From Bifidobacterium catenulatum subsp. kashiwanohense JCM 15439 = DSM 21854 (GTDB lineage Bacteria; Actinomycetota; Actinomycetes; Actinomycetales; Bifidobacteriaceae): a stretch of DNA of 64,000 nucleotides. This document shows positions 38,549-46,517 of this stretch, in pieces. Both the position numbers and the translations under genes were made by a program. Every line of letters begins with the position of its first letter. Within the stretch, counting starts at the first letter, position 1. Below the pieces are notes generated by a model that was not told the origin of the DNA, ran no database searches, and saw nothing but the letters and a program-made list of their open reading frames with translations. The stretch covers positions 1,302,001 through 1,366,000 of the forward strand of contig NZ_AP012327.1 in NCBI RefSeq assembly GCF_001042615.1, in the 5' to 3' direction.

Positions 38549-39331
38549 TCACTGCATGACCGCGTACAGCAGATATTCGATATTGCCATGCGTGCCTTCA
38601 ATGGGAGATACTGTTGTAGCGCGCACGTCAAGCCCGTTGCGTTCCGCACATGCTACGACGGATGTCAACGCCTGTTCGCGTAATTCCCGGCTTTCGACAA
38701 TCCCGTTTTTCCCAAGGTTGCCTTTGCCGACCTCGAATTGCGGTTTGACCAGCAGCACAATCTGCGCCTGCGAGGCGGCGATTCTTGCGATTACAGGAAT
38801 CACATATGTCAAGGAAATGAACGACACATCAGAAACAATCATTTCCGGACGGTACGGCAAATCATCCACATACACATCGCGGATATTGACGCCGCTCATC
38901 TCGATAATACGATCGTCATACGCGATTTTCGGGTCTAACTGTCCATGTCCGACATCCAATGCGATGACCTGCGCGGCATCATTACGCAACAACACGTCAC
39001 AGAAACCTCCGGTGGACGCGCCAATATCCAAGCAATGCAATCCCTGCGCTGAACGCAATCCTGCGTCGGCGAATCGTTCGAACGCGCCGACCAGCTTGTA
39101 TGCGCCCCTGGAAACGTAATCGTCGCCCCTATCGGCTGTGATGACGTCATCGCAGCTGACTTTCGTTGACGCCTTGGTGACGTCAACACCGTTCACACTG
39201 ACTTTGCCGTCCGCGATCAGACGTTGCGCTTTGGAACGACTGTCGGTCAGACCGCGTTCCAACAACGCAACGTCAAGACGAACTACTCGAATGGAATCAC
39301 TGTTTCGCAATGGTTTTCCGATAATCGGCAT
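38549..39331 (-). CDS. tlyA: TlyA family rRNA 2'-O-methyltransferase/hemolysin
   Basis: Predicted to methylate 16S and 23S rRNA ribose positions (C1409/C1920 in mycobacteria). I chose ATG 39331 (MPIIGKPLRNSDS); a GTG at 39376 would overlap the upstream gene. In 260 residues an N-terminal S4 RNA-binding domain (RLDVALLERGLTDSRSKAQ) is followed by the SAM site CLDIGASTGGFCDVLL near 80 and KPQFEVGKGNLGKNG. Its usual partners nadK-recN are separated from it here. Confidence 0.92.
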   Translation of the reverse strand: MPIIGKPLRNSDSIRVVRLDVALLERGLTDSRSKAQRLIADGKVSVNGVDVTKASTKVSCDDVITADRGDDYVSRGAYKLVGAFERFADAGLRSAQGLHCLDIGASTGGFCDVLLRNDAAQVIALDVGHGQLDPKIAYDDRIIEMSGVNIRDVYVDDLPYRPEMIVSDVSFISLTYVIPVIARIAASQAQIVLLVKPQFEVGKGNLGKNGIVESRELREQALTSVVACAERNGLDVRATTVSPIEGTHGNIEYLLYAVMQ

Positions 39332-39341
39332 GAACTGTTCG

Positions 39342-40367
39342 CTAGGAAATGCGGAATTCCGGAACGATGATGCCACTCACGTCACGTCCGCTGTCAGCAG
39401 CGGCCCACATGGCGCTGCATGCGGCACGCAACCCGTCGACGCTGGTGACGTCGGTGACATACAGACGGTCGCCGTCAACACGAGCCTTCGTATCGCGGCA
39501 CAGCCATGCGCCCTCATCGTACACCACTTCAGGAGCGGACTCGTTGAGGCCGCACAAATCCCTGGCGATGTAGGTTGGGCGAAGATGTGCCGGCGCGAAC
39601 ATGAGTTCGTTTGGATTGGTGACGCCGGTCAACACCGCAAGGGAATCATATCCGCCACGATTGCCCGCCTCGATATCGGTGTCGAGACGGTCTCCAATGG
39701 CGAGGCACAGTTCCTTAGCCACCGGATCGTCACCATCATGGGCTGCGAGAACACGCGCCTCATCATACATGGCGGATTCCGGCTTGCCTGCGGACGAAAC
39801 CGGTTCCACACCGGTGGCGTTGATCACCGCCATGATCATGGAACCGCATCCCGGCGCGATGCCAAGCTCGCGGGGAATGGTCAGATCACGATTGGTCACA
39901 AAATAGGTTGCGCCATGCTCGACTGCATAAGCGATCTGCGCCATCTCATTCCATGACATGTCGGGATACCAGCCTTGAATGGCGGCAACCGGCTGCTCTT
40001 CCGCACAATCGACGACCTCAAGTCCCTGCTTGGACACTTCCTCACGTAGATGCTGGGCACCAAGCACGAATACCTTCGAGCCTTCAGGCACGGCACGAGC
40101 CACCATGCGTGCGGCGACAACCGACGAGGTGATGACCTGCCATGGTTCGACTTCTAGATCGAATCCTTTCAGCTGGTCCGCCACCACGGCCTGCAATCTG
40201 GACGAATTGTTGGTGGTGTACTCTACCGTCATGCCCGAAGATTCGGCCTTGCGAATGTTCTCGGCGGCATGTTCCACAGGGTTCTTGCCGCGGTAAACCA
40301 CACCATCAAGATCAAGCAACGCCAGCTTGTACGCCTCGCTGAGCGGCTGATTCGTGGACTTCAGCAT
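39342..40367 (-). CDS. HAD-IIA family hydrolase (NagD-like)
   Basis: Start at 40367 (MLKSTNQPLSEAYK); a GTG at 40385 that overlaps the upstream stop is the alternative. The 341-residue protein has LALLDLDGVVYRGKNPVEHA near residue 15 (motif I), VEYTTNNSSR (motif II) and LCLAIGDRLDTDIEAGNRGG (motif IV). The large cap domain is type IIA, as in NagD, which dephosphorylates nucleotides. It matches the gene between the TPR protein and tlyA in mycobacteria (Rv1692). Confidence 0.88.
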   Translation of the reverse strand: MLKSTNQPLSEAYKLALLDLDGVVYRGKNPVEHAAENIRKAESSGMTVEYTTNNSSRLQAVVADQLKGFDLEVEPWQVITSSVVAARMVARAVPEGSKVFVLGAQHLREEVSKQGLEVVDCAEEQPVAAIQGWYPDMSWNEMAQIAYAVEHGATYFVTNRDLTIPRELGIAPGCGSMIMAVINATGVEPVSSAGKPESAMYDEARVLAAHDGDDPVAKELCLAIGDRLDTDIEAGNRGGYDSLAVLTGVTNPNELMFAPAHLRPTYIARDLCGLNESAPEVVYDEGAWLCRDTKARVDGDRLYVTDVTSVDGLRAACSAMWAAADSGRDVSGIIVPEFRIS

Positions 40368-40381
40368 GTGGGCCACGCACC

Positions 40382-42208
40382 TCACTCGTTGTCTTCGGAG
40401 GCTTCGGAAGATTCCTCGGCCTCATCTTCGTCGCTGTAGGCTTCGCCTTCCACGGTTTCATCCGCCTCGTTGGCTTCGGCCGGCTCAGCGTTGGCCTGAG
40501 CCGCCGGCTCGTCATCGGATTCCGCGCCAGCTTCCGCTTCCTCGGCCTCAAGCTGGGTTTCATCGCTGGTTTCGCCGTTCTCGCTGATGGCTTCGGATTC
40601 GTCTTCCTCATCCTCAGGATCTTCCGGAGCATACTGCGCGTCATCTTCGGAAATGCCGAGCACGTCCATGAGTTCGTCGTTCAGCTCCTGCATGTCGTAT
40701 TCGACAACAAGATCATCGGAAGTCTCATCATCCTCAACATCGGCATACTGTAGTTCGAGCTTGTCAAGCAGACGATCCAATGCGATGGCCTCATCGGTAC
40801 GACCGGCCTCTTCAAGGAAGTACTGTTCGGCCTGCACCGCACGCATGCGGTATTCGCCAGCCAGTCCCTTGGAATGGCCCAGCGTATGCACGATCTCAAT
40901 GGCCTTGTCCCACATCTTCAAGTCACCCAAGGCACCCGCGTAGACCAAGAACATTTCAGCCTTGGCTTCGCCTCGCAGATACTTGGCGTCATCGCTCACC
41001 GCCACTTCGATGGCCTTCTTCGGCTCGCCCATGCCACGCTCGCAGTCGGCGATGAACGGCAGGTAATCCAAGAAGCCGTTCATACGGAACGCAGTGCGGA
41101 ACTCACGCAATGCAAGCTTATAATCACCCTGACGGTATGCCACGAAGGCTAGCGTCTCACGAGCGAAATCGATGCGGGAAGCCTGACGTGCCACCCACTT
41201 GGCGTGTTCGAGAGCCAGTTCCGGATTGCTTTCCTCAAGCGTGTACGCGGCAAGAATGTGCAGACCGATGTTCTCCGCATGCTCCTTCGACAGTCCACGC
41301 AGGCGTTCACGATCGTCGGTGGTGAGCATGCGCCATTCGATACCCTTCGGCATCTTCGGCTCGTCAGGACGACGATGCGTGTACGGATTCTGAGAGGGGA
41401 AGCTCATCGTGCCATCGGAATTGCGGCGTGGCTTGGCCATGTACTCGCCACGCTTCTCCTCACGGTAAGCCATCTTCTCTTCACGGGTGAACTCGCGGCG
41501 TTCCTCACCCTGCTGCTGGTCACGATCCTTGTGGAAGTCGCGACGCTGGTCGTCACGACGGAAGTCCTTACGATCACCATCACGGAAATTACGACGGCCG
41601 CCGTCACGACGATCATTGCCACGGTGGTTATCGCGGTGGAAGTTGCGGCGTTCGCCATCACGGCGGAAGTCCTTACGATCACCGTCACGATGGAAGTCAC
41701 GACGCTCACCATCACGGTAGTTGCGGCGTTCACCGTCACGATGGAAATCCCTGCGATCGTTGTCGCGGTGGAAGCTACGGCGATCACCGTCACGGCGGAA
41801 GTCCTTACGATCACCGTCACGACGATCGTCACGACGGAAACCGGAACGCTCGCCATCGCGCTGATAGCGCGGATTGTCTCCACGACCGCCACGATAACCG
41901 CGATGATCGTCACGACGCTCGCCGTCACGGTTGAACTTGCGCGGACCGTTATGGAAGCGGCGCTCCTGGCCTTCCCCCTCACCGTCACGACGGAAATCGC
42001 GGTCGCGGTGGAAATTGCCGCCATTGCCTTTGCGATATCCGCCCTTATGGTCGTCGTTATGGAAGCCTCCGGCCTTGTGGCCGTAGGACTTGCCGCCATT
42101 GCCGCGCGGCTTGAATCCCTTGCCGCCGCGATTGCCCGGCTTGCCCGAGCCGTAGGACTTGTGGTTGCCGTAGGACTTGCCGCGCGATCCGCGCTGTTCT
42201 TCTGCCAT
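40382..42208 (-). CDS. TPR protein with Arg/Asp-rich repeat N-terminus and acidic tail
   Basis: Start at 42208 (MAEEQRGSRGKSYG). Of 608 residues, about 1-265 are low-complexity, Arg/Asp/Gly-rich, with repeated RRDGERRDFHRDGDRKDF-type units and early GG-rich patches (GGKGFKPRGNGGKSYGH). From 268, SFPSQNPYTHRRPDEP leads to a helical repeat region, 300-480, with TPR-like segments (ALEHAKWVARQA, ALREFRTAFRMNG). The last 75 or so residues are strongly acidic. This fits an RNA-binding basic region plus a protein-binding scaffold. It corresponds to the TPR gene (Rv1691) between tyrS and the HAD gene in mycobacteria. Function unknown. Confidence 0.8.
   Translation of the reverse strand: MAEEQRGSRGKSYGNHKSYGSGKPGNRGGKGFKPRGNGGKSYGHKAGGFHNDDHKGGYRKGNGGNFHRDRDFRRDGEGEGQERRFHNGPRKFNRDGERRDDHRGYRGGRGDNPRYQRDGERSGFRRDDRRDGDRKDFRRDGDRRSFHRDNDRRDFHRDGERRNYRDGERRDFHRDGDRKDFRRDGERRNFHRDNHRGNDRRDGGRRNFRDGDRKDFRRDDQRRDFHKDRDQQQGEERREFTREEKMAYREEKRGEYMAKPRRNSDGTMSFPSQNPYTHRRPDEPKMPKGIEWRMLTTDDRERLRGLSKEHAENIGLHILAAYTLEESNPELALEHAKWVARQASRIDFARETLAFVAYRQGDYKLALREFRTAFRMNGFLDYLPFIADCERGMGEPKKAIEVAVSDDAKYLRGEAKAEMFLVYAGALGDLKMWDKAIEIVHTLGHSKGLAGEYRMRAVQAEQYFLEEAGRTDEAIALDRLLDKLELQYADVEDDETSDDLVVEYDMQELNDELMDVLGISEDDAQYAPEDPEDEEDESEAISENGETSDETQLEAEEAEAGAESDDEPAAQANAEPAEANEADETVEGEAYSDEDEAEESSEASEDNE
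41540..41990 (-). repeat. Degenerate tandem repeats inside the TPR gene
   Basis: Units of roughly 20-40 bases built on CTTACGATCACCGTCACG / CGGCGTTC (plus-strand reading) recur many times and encode the RD/RDGE repeats. The array stays in frame, so it may expand and contract by slippage. Confidence 0.7.
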
Positions 42209-42291
42209 GCTGTTCCTTATATTCCTTGTATTCCTTGAGGAGGATCTTTGTTGTTCTTCGCTTACGTTTGCTTGTGCCGCTCGCGATTGCC

Positions 42292-43599
42292 TCACGCGTT
42301 TTCGACGACGCCAAGGGCCTTCTTGCCACGGCGAATCAATGCGAAACGACCATGCAGGAAATCGTTTTCGTTCAAAATCTGCTCTTCATCTTCAACACGG
42401 GCGTTGTTCAGATACACGCCGCCGGCCTTGATCGTCTTGCGCGCTTCGGAAATCGACTTGAACAGTCCGGCCTTCATGCCGGCTTCCGCCACACGGTCGC
42501 CCACCGCGGCCTTGGCGAACTCACCATCGATCTTCACACCGTCAAGAGCAGCTTCAAGCGTAGCCTCGTCAACACCTGCAAGATCGCCGCCACGGCCGAA
42601 CAGCGCACCGGCCGCCTCAATGGCCTGTCGGGTGGCTTCCTCACCATGAACCAGGCTGGTGACCTCCCAGGCCAAGGTGCGTTGCGCCTCACGCGCGCCC
42701 GGATTGGTCTTGCTTTCCTCCACAAGACGTTCAATCTCCACCTTCGGCAGGAACGTGAACACCTTCAGCAGGTTTTCCATCTCGCTGTCGGGACGGTTGA
42801 ACCAGAACTGGTAGAACTTGTACGGGCTCAGCATGGTTCCGTCGAGCCAGACGGCGTTACCCTCGGACTTGCCGAACTTCTTGCCTTGAGCGTCGGTGAT
42901 GATCGGGCTGGTGAACACGCTCACATCCACGCCACGTACCTTGTGGATCAGGTCAAGACCGGACGTGAGGTTGCCCCACTGGTCGGATCCGCCAAGCTCA
43001 AGCACGCAATGGTATTCGTCGAACAGGTGCAGGAAGTCGTTGCCTTGCAGCACCTGGTAGCTGAACTCGGTGAAGGAAATGCCATCTTCGGAATTCAGTC
43101 GACGGGCAACGGTGTCTTTGGCGAGCATGGTGCCCAAACGGAAGTTCTTGCCAACGTCACGCAGGAAGTCGATGACGTTCATGGAGGCAGTCCAATCGTA
43201 ATTGGACACAAAACGAACCGGGTTGCTGCCTTCCACTTCGAGAATGCCGCCAATCTGCGCCTTCAGACGCTCGGCCCAACCAGCCACGACGTCTTTCGGA
43301 TTGAGCGTACGTTCGCCCGACTGGCGAGGATCGCCGATCAAGCCGGTGGCGCCGCCTACCAGAGCGATCGGATGATGGCCCGCTGCCTGAAGGTGACGCA
43401 TGTTGATGAGCTGCACCAAATTGCCGATATGCAGAGAGGCAGCAGTCGGATCGAAACCGCAATAATAGGAAATGGGATCTCCGTTCAACGCTTCGGCGAG
43501 TCGATCCCTGTCAGTGGACTGGGAAATCAACCCGCGCCATTCCAGTTCATCGAGGACGGACTCGAAACCGGCCTCCTTGAAATCGATGACGTGAGCCAT
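42292..43599 (-). CDS. tyrS: Tyrosyl-tRNA synthetase
   Basis: Class I aminoacyl-tRNA synthetase. The 435 residues carry the HIGH-type motif HIGNLVQ near residue 57, [11 protein letters not shown], the tyrosine-binding QGNDFLHLF and the KMSKS-type [10 protein letters not shown] near 245. The C-terminal S4-like RNA-binding domain ([19 protein letters not shown]) is intact. It is upstream of the TPR-HAD-tlyA genes on the same strand. Confidence 0.96.
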
Positions 43600-43770: not shown

Positions 43771-45615
43771 ATGGACCGCAAAGGCATGAAGGTTGCGGCT
43801 AAGAAAGCCCAGAGAAAACATTATTGGATGATAGTCGTCATTTGTCTGTTCGCTTCGGTATTCGGTGTTGCGTACGCATCATCGACGCTCTCGGTCAACA
43901 TCAACATTTCGGTCAGCGCCCCGCAAACAGAGGATTCCACGCAATCCAACGATATGTATGGCGTATTGCGGGATCTTGCCATAGGCAATGAAGACAATGC
44001 CCGTGAAAAAGTCAAGCAAAACCAAGAGCAGATCGTCAACAACGATACCGATGCCATGTTCGGCCGCCGTCGCGGCGTAATCGCGTCCCTGCTCAACTCG
44101 TTTGCATCAGGATCGCTGGTGGTTGCCATTGTCGATGCCGTCAATTCCGTCATCCATAACGGCGGAATCTCCATTGCGGTTCCAATCATTCTTTCTTTTG
44201 CCGTCTATATTTTCATCTGGCTGTTCATTCAGGAAACGTATCGCGTCGTCATGATGCGCATGCTGTTGGAAGGACGATTCTACGACAAACTGCCGGCATC
44301 GCGCTTCTTTTACCCCATCCACACGCACGCATGGCTTCGGATAGCCTGGACCATGTTCGTGGAAAATGTGTTCCTGTTCCTTTGGAGCCTTACCATCATC
44401 GGTTTCTTCATCAAACAGTATTCCTACCGTATGGTGCCGTATATCATTGCGGAGAATCCAAACATCAAAGCCTTGGACGCTATTCGCCTGTCCCGACATA
44501 TGATGAAAGGGCATAAATGGGAATGCTTCGTGGCGGACTGCTCGTTTCTTGGCTGGTATCTGCTCAACCTCGTCACTTTTGGTCTGATCGGTATCTTTTA
44601 CTCCAATGGCTACAACGCCGCATTTTTCGCCGAGTATTACGTGTATCTGCGCACGTTGGCCAAGGACAACGGCATTGAAGGCGCCAAGATGCTCAACGAC
44701 GAATACCTGTATGCCAAGGCCGATCCGCAAACGCTTCATACCGCATATGCCGACGTCGCCCAGTCCGTGGCACAGCTCGAACAAGGACTCTCCCCCGCCC
44801 TCAAGCCGCGTGGATTCACCGGAATCCTGTCCGAATGGTTCGGCATCCGTATTCTGCATGCCGATGCGGTGAACCGTTATGAGGAATATCGCGAGGATCT
44901 TCATCAAATGCAGATTGGCAAGGATATTTTGGAAGGTAACATCTATCCGGGGCGTCTCGCACCTGCTCCCATATCATTCAAATTCCGCGAATCACATACG
45001 ATCAGTGCTGACCGTAGCTATTCGCTGGTCAATCTAGTCATGATGTTCTTCATGTTCTGCTTCGTCGGCTGGGTGTGGGAGGTAAGCCTCGCATTCATTT
45101 CCGAAGGCATGTTCGTGAATCGTGGAACCTTGCATGGCCCATGGTTACCAATTTACGGCACTGGCGGAGTGATCATTCTGATTCTGCTCAAAAAGCTGCG
45201 TGAGAAGCCCGTATTAGAGTTCGTGGCGACCATGGTGCTGTGCGGATGCTTGGAATACTTCTCGTCGTGGTATCTGGAAATGACGCATGACGGCCAGCGT
45301 TGGTGGGATTACACCGGATACTTTCTAAATGTCAACGGCCGTATCTGCGCCGAAGGATTATTGACGTTCGGCCTTGGCGGATTGGCCATCGTCTATTTGC
45401 TGGCTCCGGCCCTCGACAATCTGCTCAGCCGAATCGATACGCAAAAGCTTAGCATTGTGGCTGTCATGCTGCTCGTGCTGTATTGCGCCGACCAAGTGTA
45501 TTCCACACAGCATCCGAATATCGGCGAGGGCATCACCGACTACAAGGGATCAGATACGTCGCTGGAAGCGCCCATTCCGTACGAAATCAGTAAACGATCC
45601 AATGGACTGCCATAG
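43771..45615 (+). CDS. Membrane protein with DUF975-like and CmpB-type domains
   Basis: Start at 43771 (MDRKGMKVAAKK) after AAGGGAG. The 614-residue protein has one N-terminal transmembrane segment near 20-40, several more near 110-170 and 195-285 in a DUF975-like region (SYRMVPYIIAENPNIKALDA), a soluble linker, then a CmpB-type ABC-permease-like domain from about 415: FCFVGWVWEVSLAFISEG, VNRGTLHGPWLPIYG, CLEYFSSWYLE, RWWDYTGYFLNVNGR. The last domain recurs in the convergent neighbour. Function is unknown; membrane or envelope homeostasis is a guess. Confidence 0.75.
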   Translation: MDRKGMKVAAKKAQRKHYWMIVVICLFASVFGVAYASSTLSVNINISVSAPQTEDSTQSNDMYGVLRDLAIGNEDNAREKVKQNQEQIVNNDTDAMFGRRRGVIASLLNSFASGSLVVAIVDAVNSVIHNGGISIAVPIILSFAVYIFIWLFIQETYRVVMMRMLLEGRFYDKLPASRFFYPIHTHAWLRIAWTMFVENVFLFLWSLTIIGFFIKQYSYRMVPYIIAENPNIKALDAIRLSRHMMKGHKWECFVADCSFLGWYLLNLVTFGLIGIFYSNGYNAAFFAEYYVYLRTLAKDNGIEGAKMLNDEYLYAKADPQTLHTAYADVAQSVAQLEQGLSPALKPRGFTGILSEWFGIRILHADAVNRYEEYREDLHQMQIGKDILEGNIYPGRLAPAPISFKFRESHTISADRSYSLVNLVMMFFMFCFVGWVWEVSLAFISEGMFVNRGTLHGPWLPIYGTGGVIILILLKKLREKPVLEFVATMVLCGCLEYFSSWYLEMTHDGQRWWDYTGYFLNVNGRICAEGLLTFGLGGLAIVYLLAPALDNLLSRIDTQKLSIVAVMLLVLYCADQVYSTQHPNIGEGITDYKGSDTSLEAPIPYEISKRSNGLP

Positions 45616-45713: not shown

Positions 45714-46517
45714 TTATTTGCGACGCAGCATTTCGTGCAGAGTTTCGATGATCTTGCTGTATTTGATGGAATCCGTGAAACGCAGGCGTGGGAATGCGTT
45801 GATCATACGACGCTGCTGCTTGTTCAGGATAGATGCGGCAGTGGCCTGCATACTGGCAAGAATCTCCTGCGAAGAGTCCGACCAGTCCTGAACCTTGTCT
45901 TGTACCTTGTCACGGAATTTGTCTCGGAAAACGTCCTTGCCCCATTGCAGAGAATCGCCGGCCTTCTCCGCATATGCCTGCACGGTTTCACTGAACTTCG
46001 CAAGATTATCGGCCAAATCGATGATGCCAAGCACTGTGATAATGGTATCCGCGACGATAAGCGCCATGAAAATCACACACATCCAATGCACCGCCGGCAA
46101 AGGAATCATCTGTGTGACACGATTCACTTCAGGCTGTATCACATCTGTGATGAGCACACCCAGCAGACCGAACACCACCGCTCCAAGCAAACAAATGCGC
46201 CCTTGAACGTTGAATCGGAGATGACTGTAATCCCACCACCGCGCGTGGAATAGCTTTTCCATGCCCCATGACGTGATGTATTCAAGTATGCATGCGCCAA
46301 TCGAGGAGATGAGAAAAACAGCGAAGGGATTATGCAGATCATGCAGCAGCATAATCGCAAGAACGGCTCCACAACCGTAGATCGGACAGACGGGACCATT
46401 CAGGAAACCACGATTCACCAAACGACGTTCCGAAACGGACACAAGAATCGACTCGTATACCCATCCGGCAAATGAATAGAACAGAAACCATAAGAACAGG
46501 TATTCCAACAGGAGCAT
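45714..46517 (-). CDS. CmpB-type putative ABC transporter permease
   Basis: A 267-residue protein with four or five hydrophobic segments and the CmpB signature: FAGWVYESILVSVSERRLVN, GPVCPIYGCGAVL, ILEYITSWGMEKLFHARWWD and FNVQGRICLLGAV. The cytosolic C-terminus (about 180-267) is charged and helical. Clearly paralogous to the C-terminal part of the convergent 43771 gene. It is followed from the upstream side by an HD-domain gene, 12 bases away, so the pair forms an operon. Confidence 0.8.
   Translation of the reverse strand: MLLLEYLFLWFLFYSFAGWVYESILVSVSERRLVNRGFLNGPVCPIYGCGAVLAIMLLHDLHNPFAVFLISSIGACILEYITSWGMEKLFHARWWDYSHLRFNVQGRICLLGAVVFGLLGVLITDVIQPEVNRVTQMIPLPAVHWMCVIFMALIVADTIITVLGIIDLADNLAKFSETVQAYAEKAGDSLQWGKDVFRDKFRDKVQDKVQDWSDSSQEILASMQATAASILNKQQRRMINAFPRLRFTDSIKYSKIIETLHEMLRRK

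What the first reader, a model, noticed from the sequence alone, without database searches (positions are those of the whole stretch)
40382..42208. TPR scaffold with slippage-prone RD-repeat arm and acidic tail
The gene joins about 265 residues of Arg/Asp/Gly repeats, a helical-repeat core and an acidic tail. The corresponding mycobacterial gene is a plain TPR protein as I recall it, so the repeat arm appears to be lineage-specific. The DNA repeats stay in frame, so arm length may vary between strains. Basic repeats plus an acidic tail suggest RNA-driven condensation or ribosome-linked binding, next to tyrS and tlyA.
Basis: partly seen in the sequence, partly recalled or inferred. Interest (0 to 1): 0.55.

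Follow-up and report, generated by a model that had tools for sequence, protein, structure and literature searches.

The report
rRNA-operon-linked TPR protein with RD-arm
An uncharacterised protein found in most actinobacteria, with a long arginine/aspartate-rich arm at its front end, is encoded directly behind a ribosomal RNA operon in most relatives examined, which makes it a good candidate for a helper in building or handling ribosomes.

Summary
The gene is real: 608 aa, minus strand 42208-40382, with a disordered R/D/G-rich arm (283 aa, net +25), a TPR core (200 aa) and an acidic tail (125 aa, net -55). The arm is not a bifidobacterial novelty. Similar RD/RG arms occur across the class and beyond (mostly Streptomyces loci: median 390 aa); mycobacteria-like genomes carry a short one. 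Nor is it notably slippage-prone: repeat copies are old, indels are in frame, and it evolves under purifying selection.

Following the gene outward gave the main result. In 37 of 40 fetched class loci it lies downstream of an rRNA operon on the same strand, usually as tyrS-16S-23S-5S-TPR-HAD-tlyA, with a median of 127 nt from 5S to the start codon. The linkage also appears in 13 of 20 loci outside the class. Bifidobacteriaceae kept the gene without the rRNA operon. The mycobacterial orthologue co-purified with RNA polymerase but not with DNA (PMC7092591). Codon usage resembles ribosomal proteins.

Best reading: an rRNA- or ribosome-biogenesis-associated TPR scaffold. The linkage is shown; RNA binding and function are inferred. 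A terminator-like hairpin lies between 5S and the gene, so co-transcription is unproven.

The parts
40382..42208 (-). TPR-core protein gene with RD-rich arm and acidic tail, 608 aa, ATG start
   Evidence: orthologue in 112 of 112 genus genomes
41360..42208 (-). N-terminal arm, residues 1-283, R/D/G-rich, predicted disordered
   Evidence: composition; single-sequence AlphaFold2 pLDDT under 50 over nearly all of residues 1-218
41551..41836 (-). in-frame tandem array inside the arm (periods 27, 78 and 132 nt)
40760..41359 (-). TPR core, residues 284-483, all-helical
   Evidence: alignment A1; AlphaFold2 with alignment, pLDDT 88.6; PDB folds all generic TPR
40385..40759 (-). acidic C-terminal tail, residues 484-608, net -55, no K or R
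42292..43599 (-). tyrS, directly upstream; in most other actinobacteria examined the rRNA operon lies between tyrS and the TPR gene
   Evidence: TIGR00234
42209..42291 (.). tyrS-TPR intergenic gap (83 nt) where most relatives carry 16S-23S-5S; no rRNA here
   Evidence: 0 of 110 genus loci with an rRNA hit
39342..40385 (-). HAD-IIA hydrolase gene; its GTG overlaps the TPR stop by 4 bases if that start is used
   Evidence: TIGR01460; sequence
38549..39376 (-). tlyA family rRNA 2'-O-methyltransferase
   Evidence: TIGR00478

Best explanation
This is the Bifidobacterium member of an uncharacterised, normally single-copy actinobacterial TPR family whose gene was ancestrally placed directly behind an rRNA operon (tyrS-rrn-TPR-HAD-tlyA). 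Proposed mechanism: a well-expressed, ribosome-linked scaffold. The disordered arginine-rich arm holds rRNA or pre-ribosomes loosely and multivalently, the TPR core recruits a partner protein, and the acidic tail (where present) competes for the arm or for basic ribosomal proteins. It would act in rRNA handling or ribosome assembly. SHOWN: family distribution, rRNA-operon linkage, predicted disorder, arm charge pattern, purifying selection on the arm, ribosomal-protein-like codon usage. INFERRED: RNA binding, partners, the assembly role. In Bifidobacteriaceae the adjacent rRNA operon was lost and the gene now usually follows tyrS directly.
For: (1) Linkage. 5S rRNA upstream on the same strand in 37 of 40 fetched class loci; of the 3 misses one had only 345 nt upstream. 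58 of 80 named genome-contig loci have it, and all 22 misses had under 1.5 kb upstream. 13 of 20 loci outside the class. Named and annotated example: Tsukamurella tyrosinosolvens tyrS-16S-23S-5S-'hypothetical protein'-HAD-TlyA-NAD kinase-RecN. (2) The 5S-to-start gap is short: median 127 nt, 85 of 94 at or under 300 nt. (3) Outside the class, neighbours on the other side are mostly not found while rRNA is kept: in 20 loci HAD in 5 and tlyA in 1, against rRNA in 13. (4) Core in 252 of 267 good class genomes and in 112 of 112 genus genomes. (5) R-rich arms across the class. In two reduced relatives an R/K/G/D-rich arm sits at the C-terminus instead (L342, L345). (6) Arm dN/dS 0.07-0.15 in six pairs with enough changes. 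(7) Codon adaptation 0.735 against 0.63-0.86 for ribosomal proteins; core ranks 3rd of 43 window ORFs. (8) M. smegmatis orthologue MSMEG_3754 recovered with crosslinked RNA polymerase, no DNA detected; the authors note it may be RNA-associated (PMC7092591, passages).
Against: No RNA-binding or ribosome-binding data were found for this protein. A hairpin plus T-run terminator follows 5S before the gene in 74 of 85 short spacers (mononucleotide shuffles: 21.9), so co-transcription with rRNA is not implied. Conserved position beside rrn can persist without functional coupling. Bifidobacteriaceae and L148 lack the linkage and keep the gene. The arm is only weakly net-positive, so strong RNA binding is not guaranteed. 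In mycobacteria-like genomes and in AT-rich reduced relatives the arm is short or lacks R repeats, so it is not essential to the family's basic role. Arm and tail net charge do not co-vary (contrast r -0.18).
Confidence: 0.5

Rival explanations
1. Transcription-side factor: a TPR adaptor that travels with RNA polymerase on rRNA operons (antitermination, elongation or R-loop control) rather than acting on ribosomes.
For: MSMEG_3754 was found in RNA polymerase beta-subunit affinity purification (PMC7092591, passages). rRNA-operon linkage fits equally well.
Against: That dataset held 275 proteins after crosslinking; FLAG-MSMEG_3754 pulled down no visible DNA. No domain typical of elongation factors was found.
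Confidence: 0.15
2. Chaperone for basic proteins, such as ribosomal proteins: the TPR core and acidic tail shield basic clients, and the arm mimics or competes with clients.
For: Tail net -55 without K or R; arm and tail lengths co-vary in the genus after phylogenetic contrasts (r 0.47, sign-flip 0 of 5000). sNASP and TSK histone-binding TPR structures are among the fold matches.
Against: Fold matches are generic TPR. The tail is only about 10-30 aa with net -1 to -5 in many relatives (f11/g16, f33, f34), so a long acidic tail is not a family feature.
Confidence: 0.13
3. Hitchhiker: the gene sits beside rrn only because synteny near rRNA operons is stable; the protein is an unrelated adaptor and the arm is a near-neutral low-complexity expansion.
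For: Terminator-like hairpin between 5S and the gene; the gene persists where rrn is gone; arm length drifts 115-433 aa.
Against: Arm dN/dS 0.07-0.15; rRNA linkage kept outside the class where HAD and tlyA linkage is mostly not found; ribosomal-protein-like codon usage.
Confidence: 0.18
4. Condensate scaffold: arm and tail drive RNA-dependent phase separation.
For: Polyampholyte arm with repeats plus oppositely charged tail; predicted disorder.
Against: No experimental data; short-arm relatives keep the family's gene and position.
Confidence: 0.04

Closest known systems
Rv1691 / MSMEG_3754 (mycobacterial TPR protein of the lprJ-recN region)
   Same: Named as TPR protein in PMC7092591 (passages); its gene is listed between lprJ and tlyA in the operon described by PMC3072309 (passages). 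Orthology to the window gene is inferred from synteny and from the f11/g16 cores (33-39% identical); no named mycobacterial sequence was compared.
   Different: Mycobacteria-like members have about 42-61 aa of R-rich arm and a 23-aa tail; the window protein has 283 and 125.
tyrS-rrnB arrangement of mycobacteria
   Same: rRNA operon downstream of tyrS is described for mycobacteria with two operons (PMC10218544 and PMC6089878, passages).
   Different: Those passages treat the upstream side. The TPR gene behind 5S, and the spread of the arrangement over the phylum, were not in any passage or listing I saw.
Generic TPR proteins (MamA, LGN, YrrB)
   Same: Fold: MamA 3vty_C Z 15.9 (rmsd 3.8, 176 aligned), LGN 3sf4_A Z 15.9 (rmsd 3.7, 193 aligned).
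   Different: About 10-20% identity; the ranking does not single out one relative.
RGG/RD-box tails of RNA-binding proteins (recalled, no call)
   Same: Arginine-rich, disordered, repeat-built.
   Different: Only 2 RGG motifs; the unit is RD-centred (FRRDGDR-like).

Membership tests
Tetratricopeptide repeat (TPR) proteins | Match to a Pfam TPR model at the curated cut-off | tested here: not met
   Window protein: TPR_2 18.1 bits against 27; core alone 23.2. Relatives score better (TPR_19 best E 8.3e-10).
Tetratricopeptide repeat (TPR) proteins | Right-handed stack of helical hairpins | tested here: met
   AlphaFold2 model of the core all-helical, pLDDT 88.6; top structural matches are TPR proteins.
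Actinobacterial Rv1691-type TPR family | Single copy, same neighbours tyrS / HAD / tlyA | tested here: met
   Window order tyrS-TPR-HAD-tlyA; one match in each of 112 genus genomes.
Actinobacterial Rv1691-type TPR family | rRNA operon immediately upstream (common, not defining: absent in some members) | tested here: not met
   No rRNA in the window; the six 5S genes of this genome are over 400 kb away.
RGG-box RNA-binding proteins | Clustered RGG repeats | tested here: not met
   2 RGG in 283 residues.
Ribosome-assembly factors | Physical association with pre-ribosomes and assembly defect on deletion | not testable with these tools
   Needs gradients, CLIP and a deletion.
Phase-separating scaffolds | RNA-dependent condensates in vitro and in cells | not testable with these tools
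   Only composition and disorder prediction available.

The most novel reading that the evidence does not exclude
Actinomycetota carry a dedicated rRNA- or pre-ribosome-binding scaffold that has been genetically tied to the rRNA operon since before their classes split: a small part of rRNA transcription reads through the rrn terminator into this gene, so the amount of factor tracks rRNA synthesis, and arm length tunes multivalent rRNA binding.
Probability: 0.25. Interest if true: 0.8.

Novelty: new variant of a known kind. Interest (0 to 1): 0.58.

Why it matters
A gene present in about 94% of good-quality class genomes examined (252 of 267) has no assigned function that I could find. Its position behind the rRNA operon gives a specific, easily tested hypothesis, and would add a protein-coding member to a locus thought of as rRNA only. 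If it is a ribosome-assembly factor it would be a lineage-specific part of how these bacteria build ribosomes. It also offers natural variants (short arm, long arm, arm at the other end) for testing what disordered arginine-rich arms do in bacteria.

Tried and rejected
Lineage-specific repeat arm: rejected, since similar arms are class-wide. Microsatellite-like slippage: not favoured. Hidden known family: none in Pfam or NCBIfam above cut-off, no clear PDB sequence relative (best E 0.23), no specific fold relative; an absent family there is inconclusive. Another gene with the same arm in this genome: only itself found (low-complexity queries are hard for such searches). Phage or plasmid origin: no phage match, 2 plasmid-collection records, one an 11.85-Mb replicon. 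Antisense ORF 41204-42238: no family. Arm/tail charge balance: net charges do not co-vary. Literature on rrn-TPR linkage: nothing found in the searches (open-licence PMC papers only).

Selection to note: the first cmscan set (15 of 16 with rRNA) and part of the loci outside the class (L290-L294, L296) were chosen because contig ends suggested rRNA. The 40 class loci were chosen's listed rows for contig length, not for rRNA, but came from the better-scoring part of a truncated list. Start codons were assigned by rule, after the 5S end; some (L148, L149, L167, L175, L176) are doubtful and L158 got none. The ribosomal-protein reference includes a few spurious ORFs.

Full report
WHAT IS THERE. The ORF at 40382-42208 (minus) encodes 608 aa. 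Residues 1-283 form an R/D/G-rich arm (67 R; KR 84, DE 59; net +25), residues 284-483 the core (net -4), residues 484-608 an acidic tail (55 acidic, no basic residue). RD dipeptides are about twice expectation (22 against 9.5; largest of 2000 shuffles 18). Three overlapping in-frame arrays (27, 78 and 132 nt) lie at 41551-41836. A single-sequence AlphaFold2 run gives no confident structure for the arm or most of the tail. With an alignment of the window core and 48 of the 80 named loci, the core folds at pLDDT 88.6, all helices. Pfam TPR models match weakly, below cut-off for this member. PDB comparison gives only generic TPR folds.

HOW THE ARM EVOLVES. All 112 genomes of the genus have one copy. 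In 108 of 110 fetched loci (two dropped) the arm is 115-433 aa (median 288) and the tail 53-249 (median 141). 92 of 108 arms carry a tandem array, and 335 of 336 array periods are multiples of three; only 2 of 108 cores have one. Arm and tail lengths co-vary after phylogenetic contrasts (r 0.47; sign-flip 0 of 5000), but their net charges do not. Between close relatives the arm is constrained: dN/dS is 0.07-0.15 in six pairs, against 0.00-0.08 for the core and 0.13-0.33 for the tail. In three pairs with few changes it is 0.17-0.54, and one pair has no silent change. Indels between close relatives are in frame, for example 16 aa, 14+5 aa and 43 aa. Repeat copies within the window arm have silent divergence 0.6-1.4. 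This is an old, selected, slowly reshuffled repeat region rather than a slippage switch.

HOW WIDE THE FAMILY IS. The core is found in 269 of 296 class genomes (252 of 267 good ones), in 41 of 41 family genomes, and, with a profile, in 81 of 198 phylum genomes at E <= 1e-10. RD/RG-rich arms are present across the class: f5 199-380 aa, f34 106-128 aa, f24, f25 and f27 about 130-820 aa, and 58 usable named loci, mostly Streptomyces, 58-488 aa with median 390 (f-numbers are the tool's labels for unnamed families). The f11/g16 genomes, taken here as mycobacteria-like, have about 42-61 aa (L148's start is doubtful). Two reduced-genome relatives in the window's family carry the R/K/G/D-rich arm at the C-terminus (L342, L345; assemblies 76% and 57% complete), and AT-rich relatives lack an R-rich arm.

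THE RIBOSOMAL RNA OPERON. Many matches sat close to a contig end, and upstream frames read like translated 5S rRNA. Rfam search confirmed 23S or 5S directly upstream in 15 of 16 loci picked largely on that suspicion. L179 has part of a 16S far upstream. Order where complete: tyrS-16S-23S-5S-TPR-HAD-tlyA. In 94 loci the 5S-to-start gap has median 127 nt, with 85 at or under 300 nt. In a few families (f24, f25, f27, f46) it reaches kilobases. Outside the class 13 of 20 loci show the linkage. L299 has 16S only, L283 and L284 have none in about 10 kb, and L287, L291, L294 and L296 had under 1.6 kb upstream. There, HAD was found in 5 and tlyA in 1 of the same 20 loci (Bifidobacterium queries, about 4 kb downstream), so the rRNA side is the better kept. 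By simple arithmetic (a handful of rRNA operons among thousands of genes) a random gene would have an rRNA operon as its upstream neighbour in well under 1% of genomes; relatedness of the genomes means these are not independent events.

WHAT HAPPENED IN BIFIDOBACTERIA. None of 110 genus loci and none of 42 further family loci (37 genomes) has an rRNA hit upstream within the 0.7-10 kb available; tyrS is usually adjacent. This genome's six 5S genes lie at 1.77-2.30 Mb, the TPR gene at 1.34 Mb. The simplest history is loss of that rRNA copy before the family radiated. L148 shows that the gene also persists elsewhere without it.

COUPLING TO rRNA TRANSCRIPTION. A hairpin with a T-rich tract stands between 5S and the gene in 74 of 85 short spacers (shuffle expectation 21.9). 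Expression could be by read-through or by a promoter in the last 50-80 nt; my data do not decide. In the window no terminator-like site separates tyrS from the TPR gene on the coding strand. Codon usage of the gene (0.735) lies in the ribosomal-protein range (0.63-0.86), above tyrS (0.667) and tlyA (0.445).

EXPERIMENTAL HINTS IN PRINT. MSMEG_3754 (Rv1691 orthologue) was among 275 proteins recovered with crosslinked RNA polymerase beta subunit; FLAG pull-down gave no DNA, and the authors allow that it may be RNA-associated (PMC7092591, abstract, outline and passages). It also appears in a ClpC1 interactome table (PMC10433963, passage). tyrS-rrnB linkage is known in mycobacteria (PMC10218544 and PMC6089878, passages). 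I saw no paper on the TPR gene's place behind rRNA operons in ten searches.

CONCLUSION. The stronger finding is a phylum-level link between an uncharacterised TPR family and the rRNA operon. A ribosome-biogenesis or rRNA-handling scaffold is the most likely role (about 0.5), with transcription-side, chaperone and hitchhiker readings still open.

Noticed in passing
L001 vs L002/L003 and L006 vs L007: Arm silent divergence is far lower than core divergence (0.017 vs 0.208; 0.20 vs 0.63), suggesting recombination or gene conversion within the gene.
   Followed up: no
window 40382-40385; L352 8660-8663: TPR stop and HAD start overlap by 4 bases in Bifidobacterium (if GTG is the start) and in Tsukamurella, suggesting translational coupling of TPR and HAD hydrolase.
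   Followed up: no
L285 8886-9187: Group I intron inside the 23S rRNA of the operon upstream of the TPR gene.
   Followed up: no
L156: A second rRNA operon (its 23S end and 5S seen) lies in tandem upstream of the one next to the TPR gene.
   Followed up: no
L060, L111: Metagenome assemblies titled Bifidobacterium breve whose TPR gene matches a non-bifidobacterial actinobacterial query at 60-66% identity; probably mislabelled.
   Followed up: no
window 41204-42238 (+): Antisense frame fully open across the arm (344 aa) without any family match; probably a by-product of stop-free repeat codons.
   Followed up: partly
window 43771-45615 and 45714-46517: Two predicted proteins upstream of tyrS share 'GWVWE/GWVYES' and 'NRG.L.GP..PIYG' stretches on opposite strands, read by eye from the ORF list; possibly paralogous membrane proteins.
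   Followed up: no
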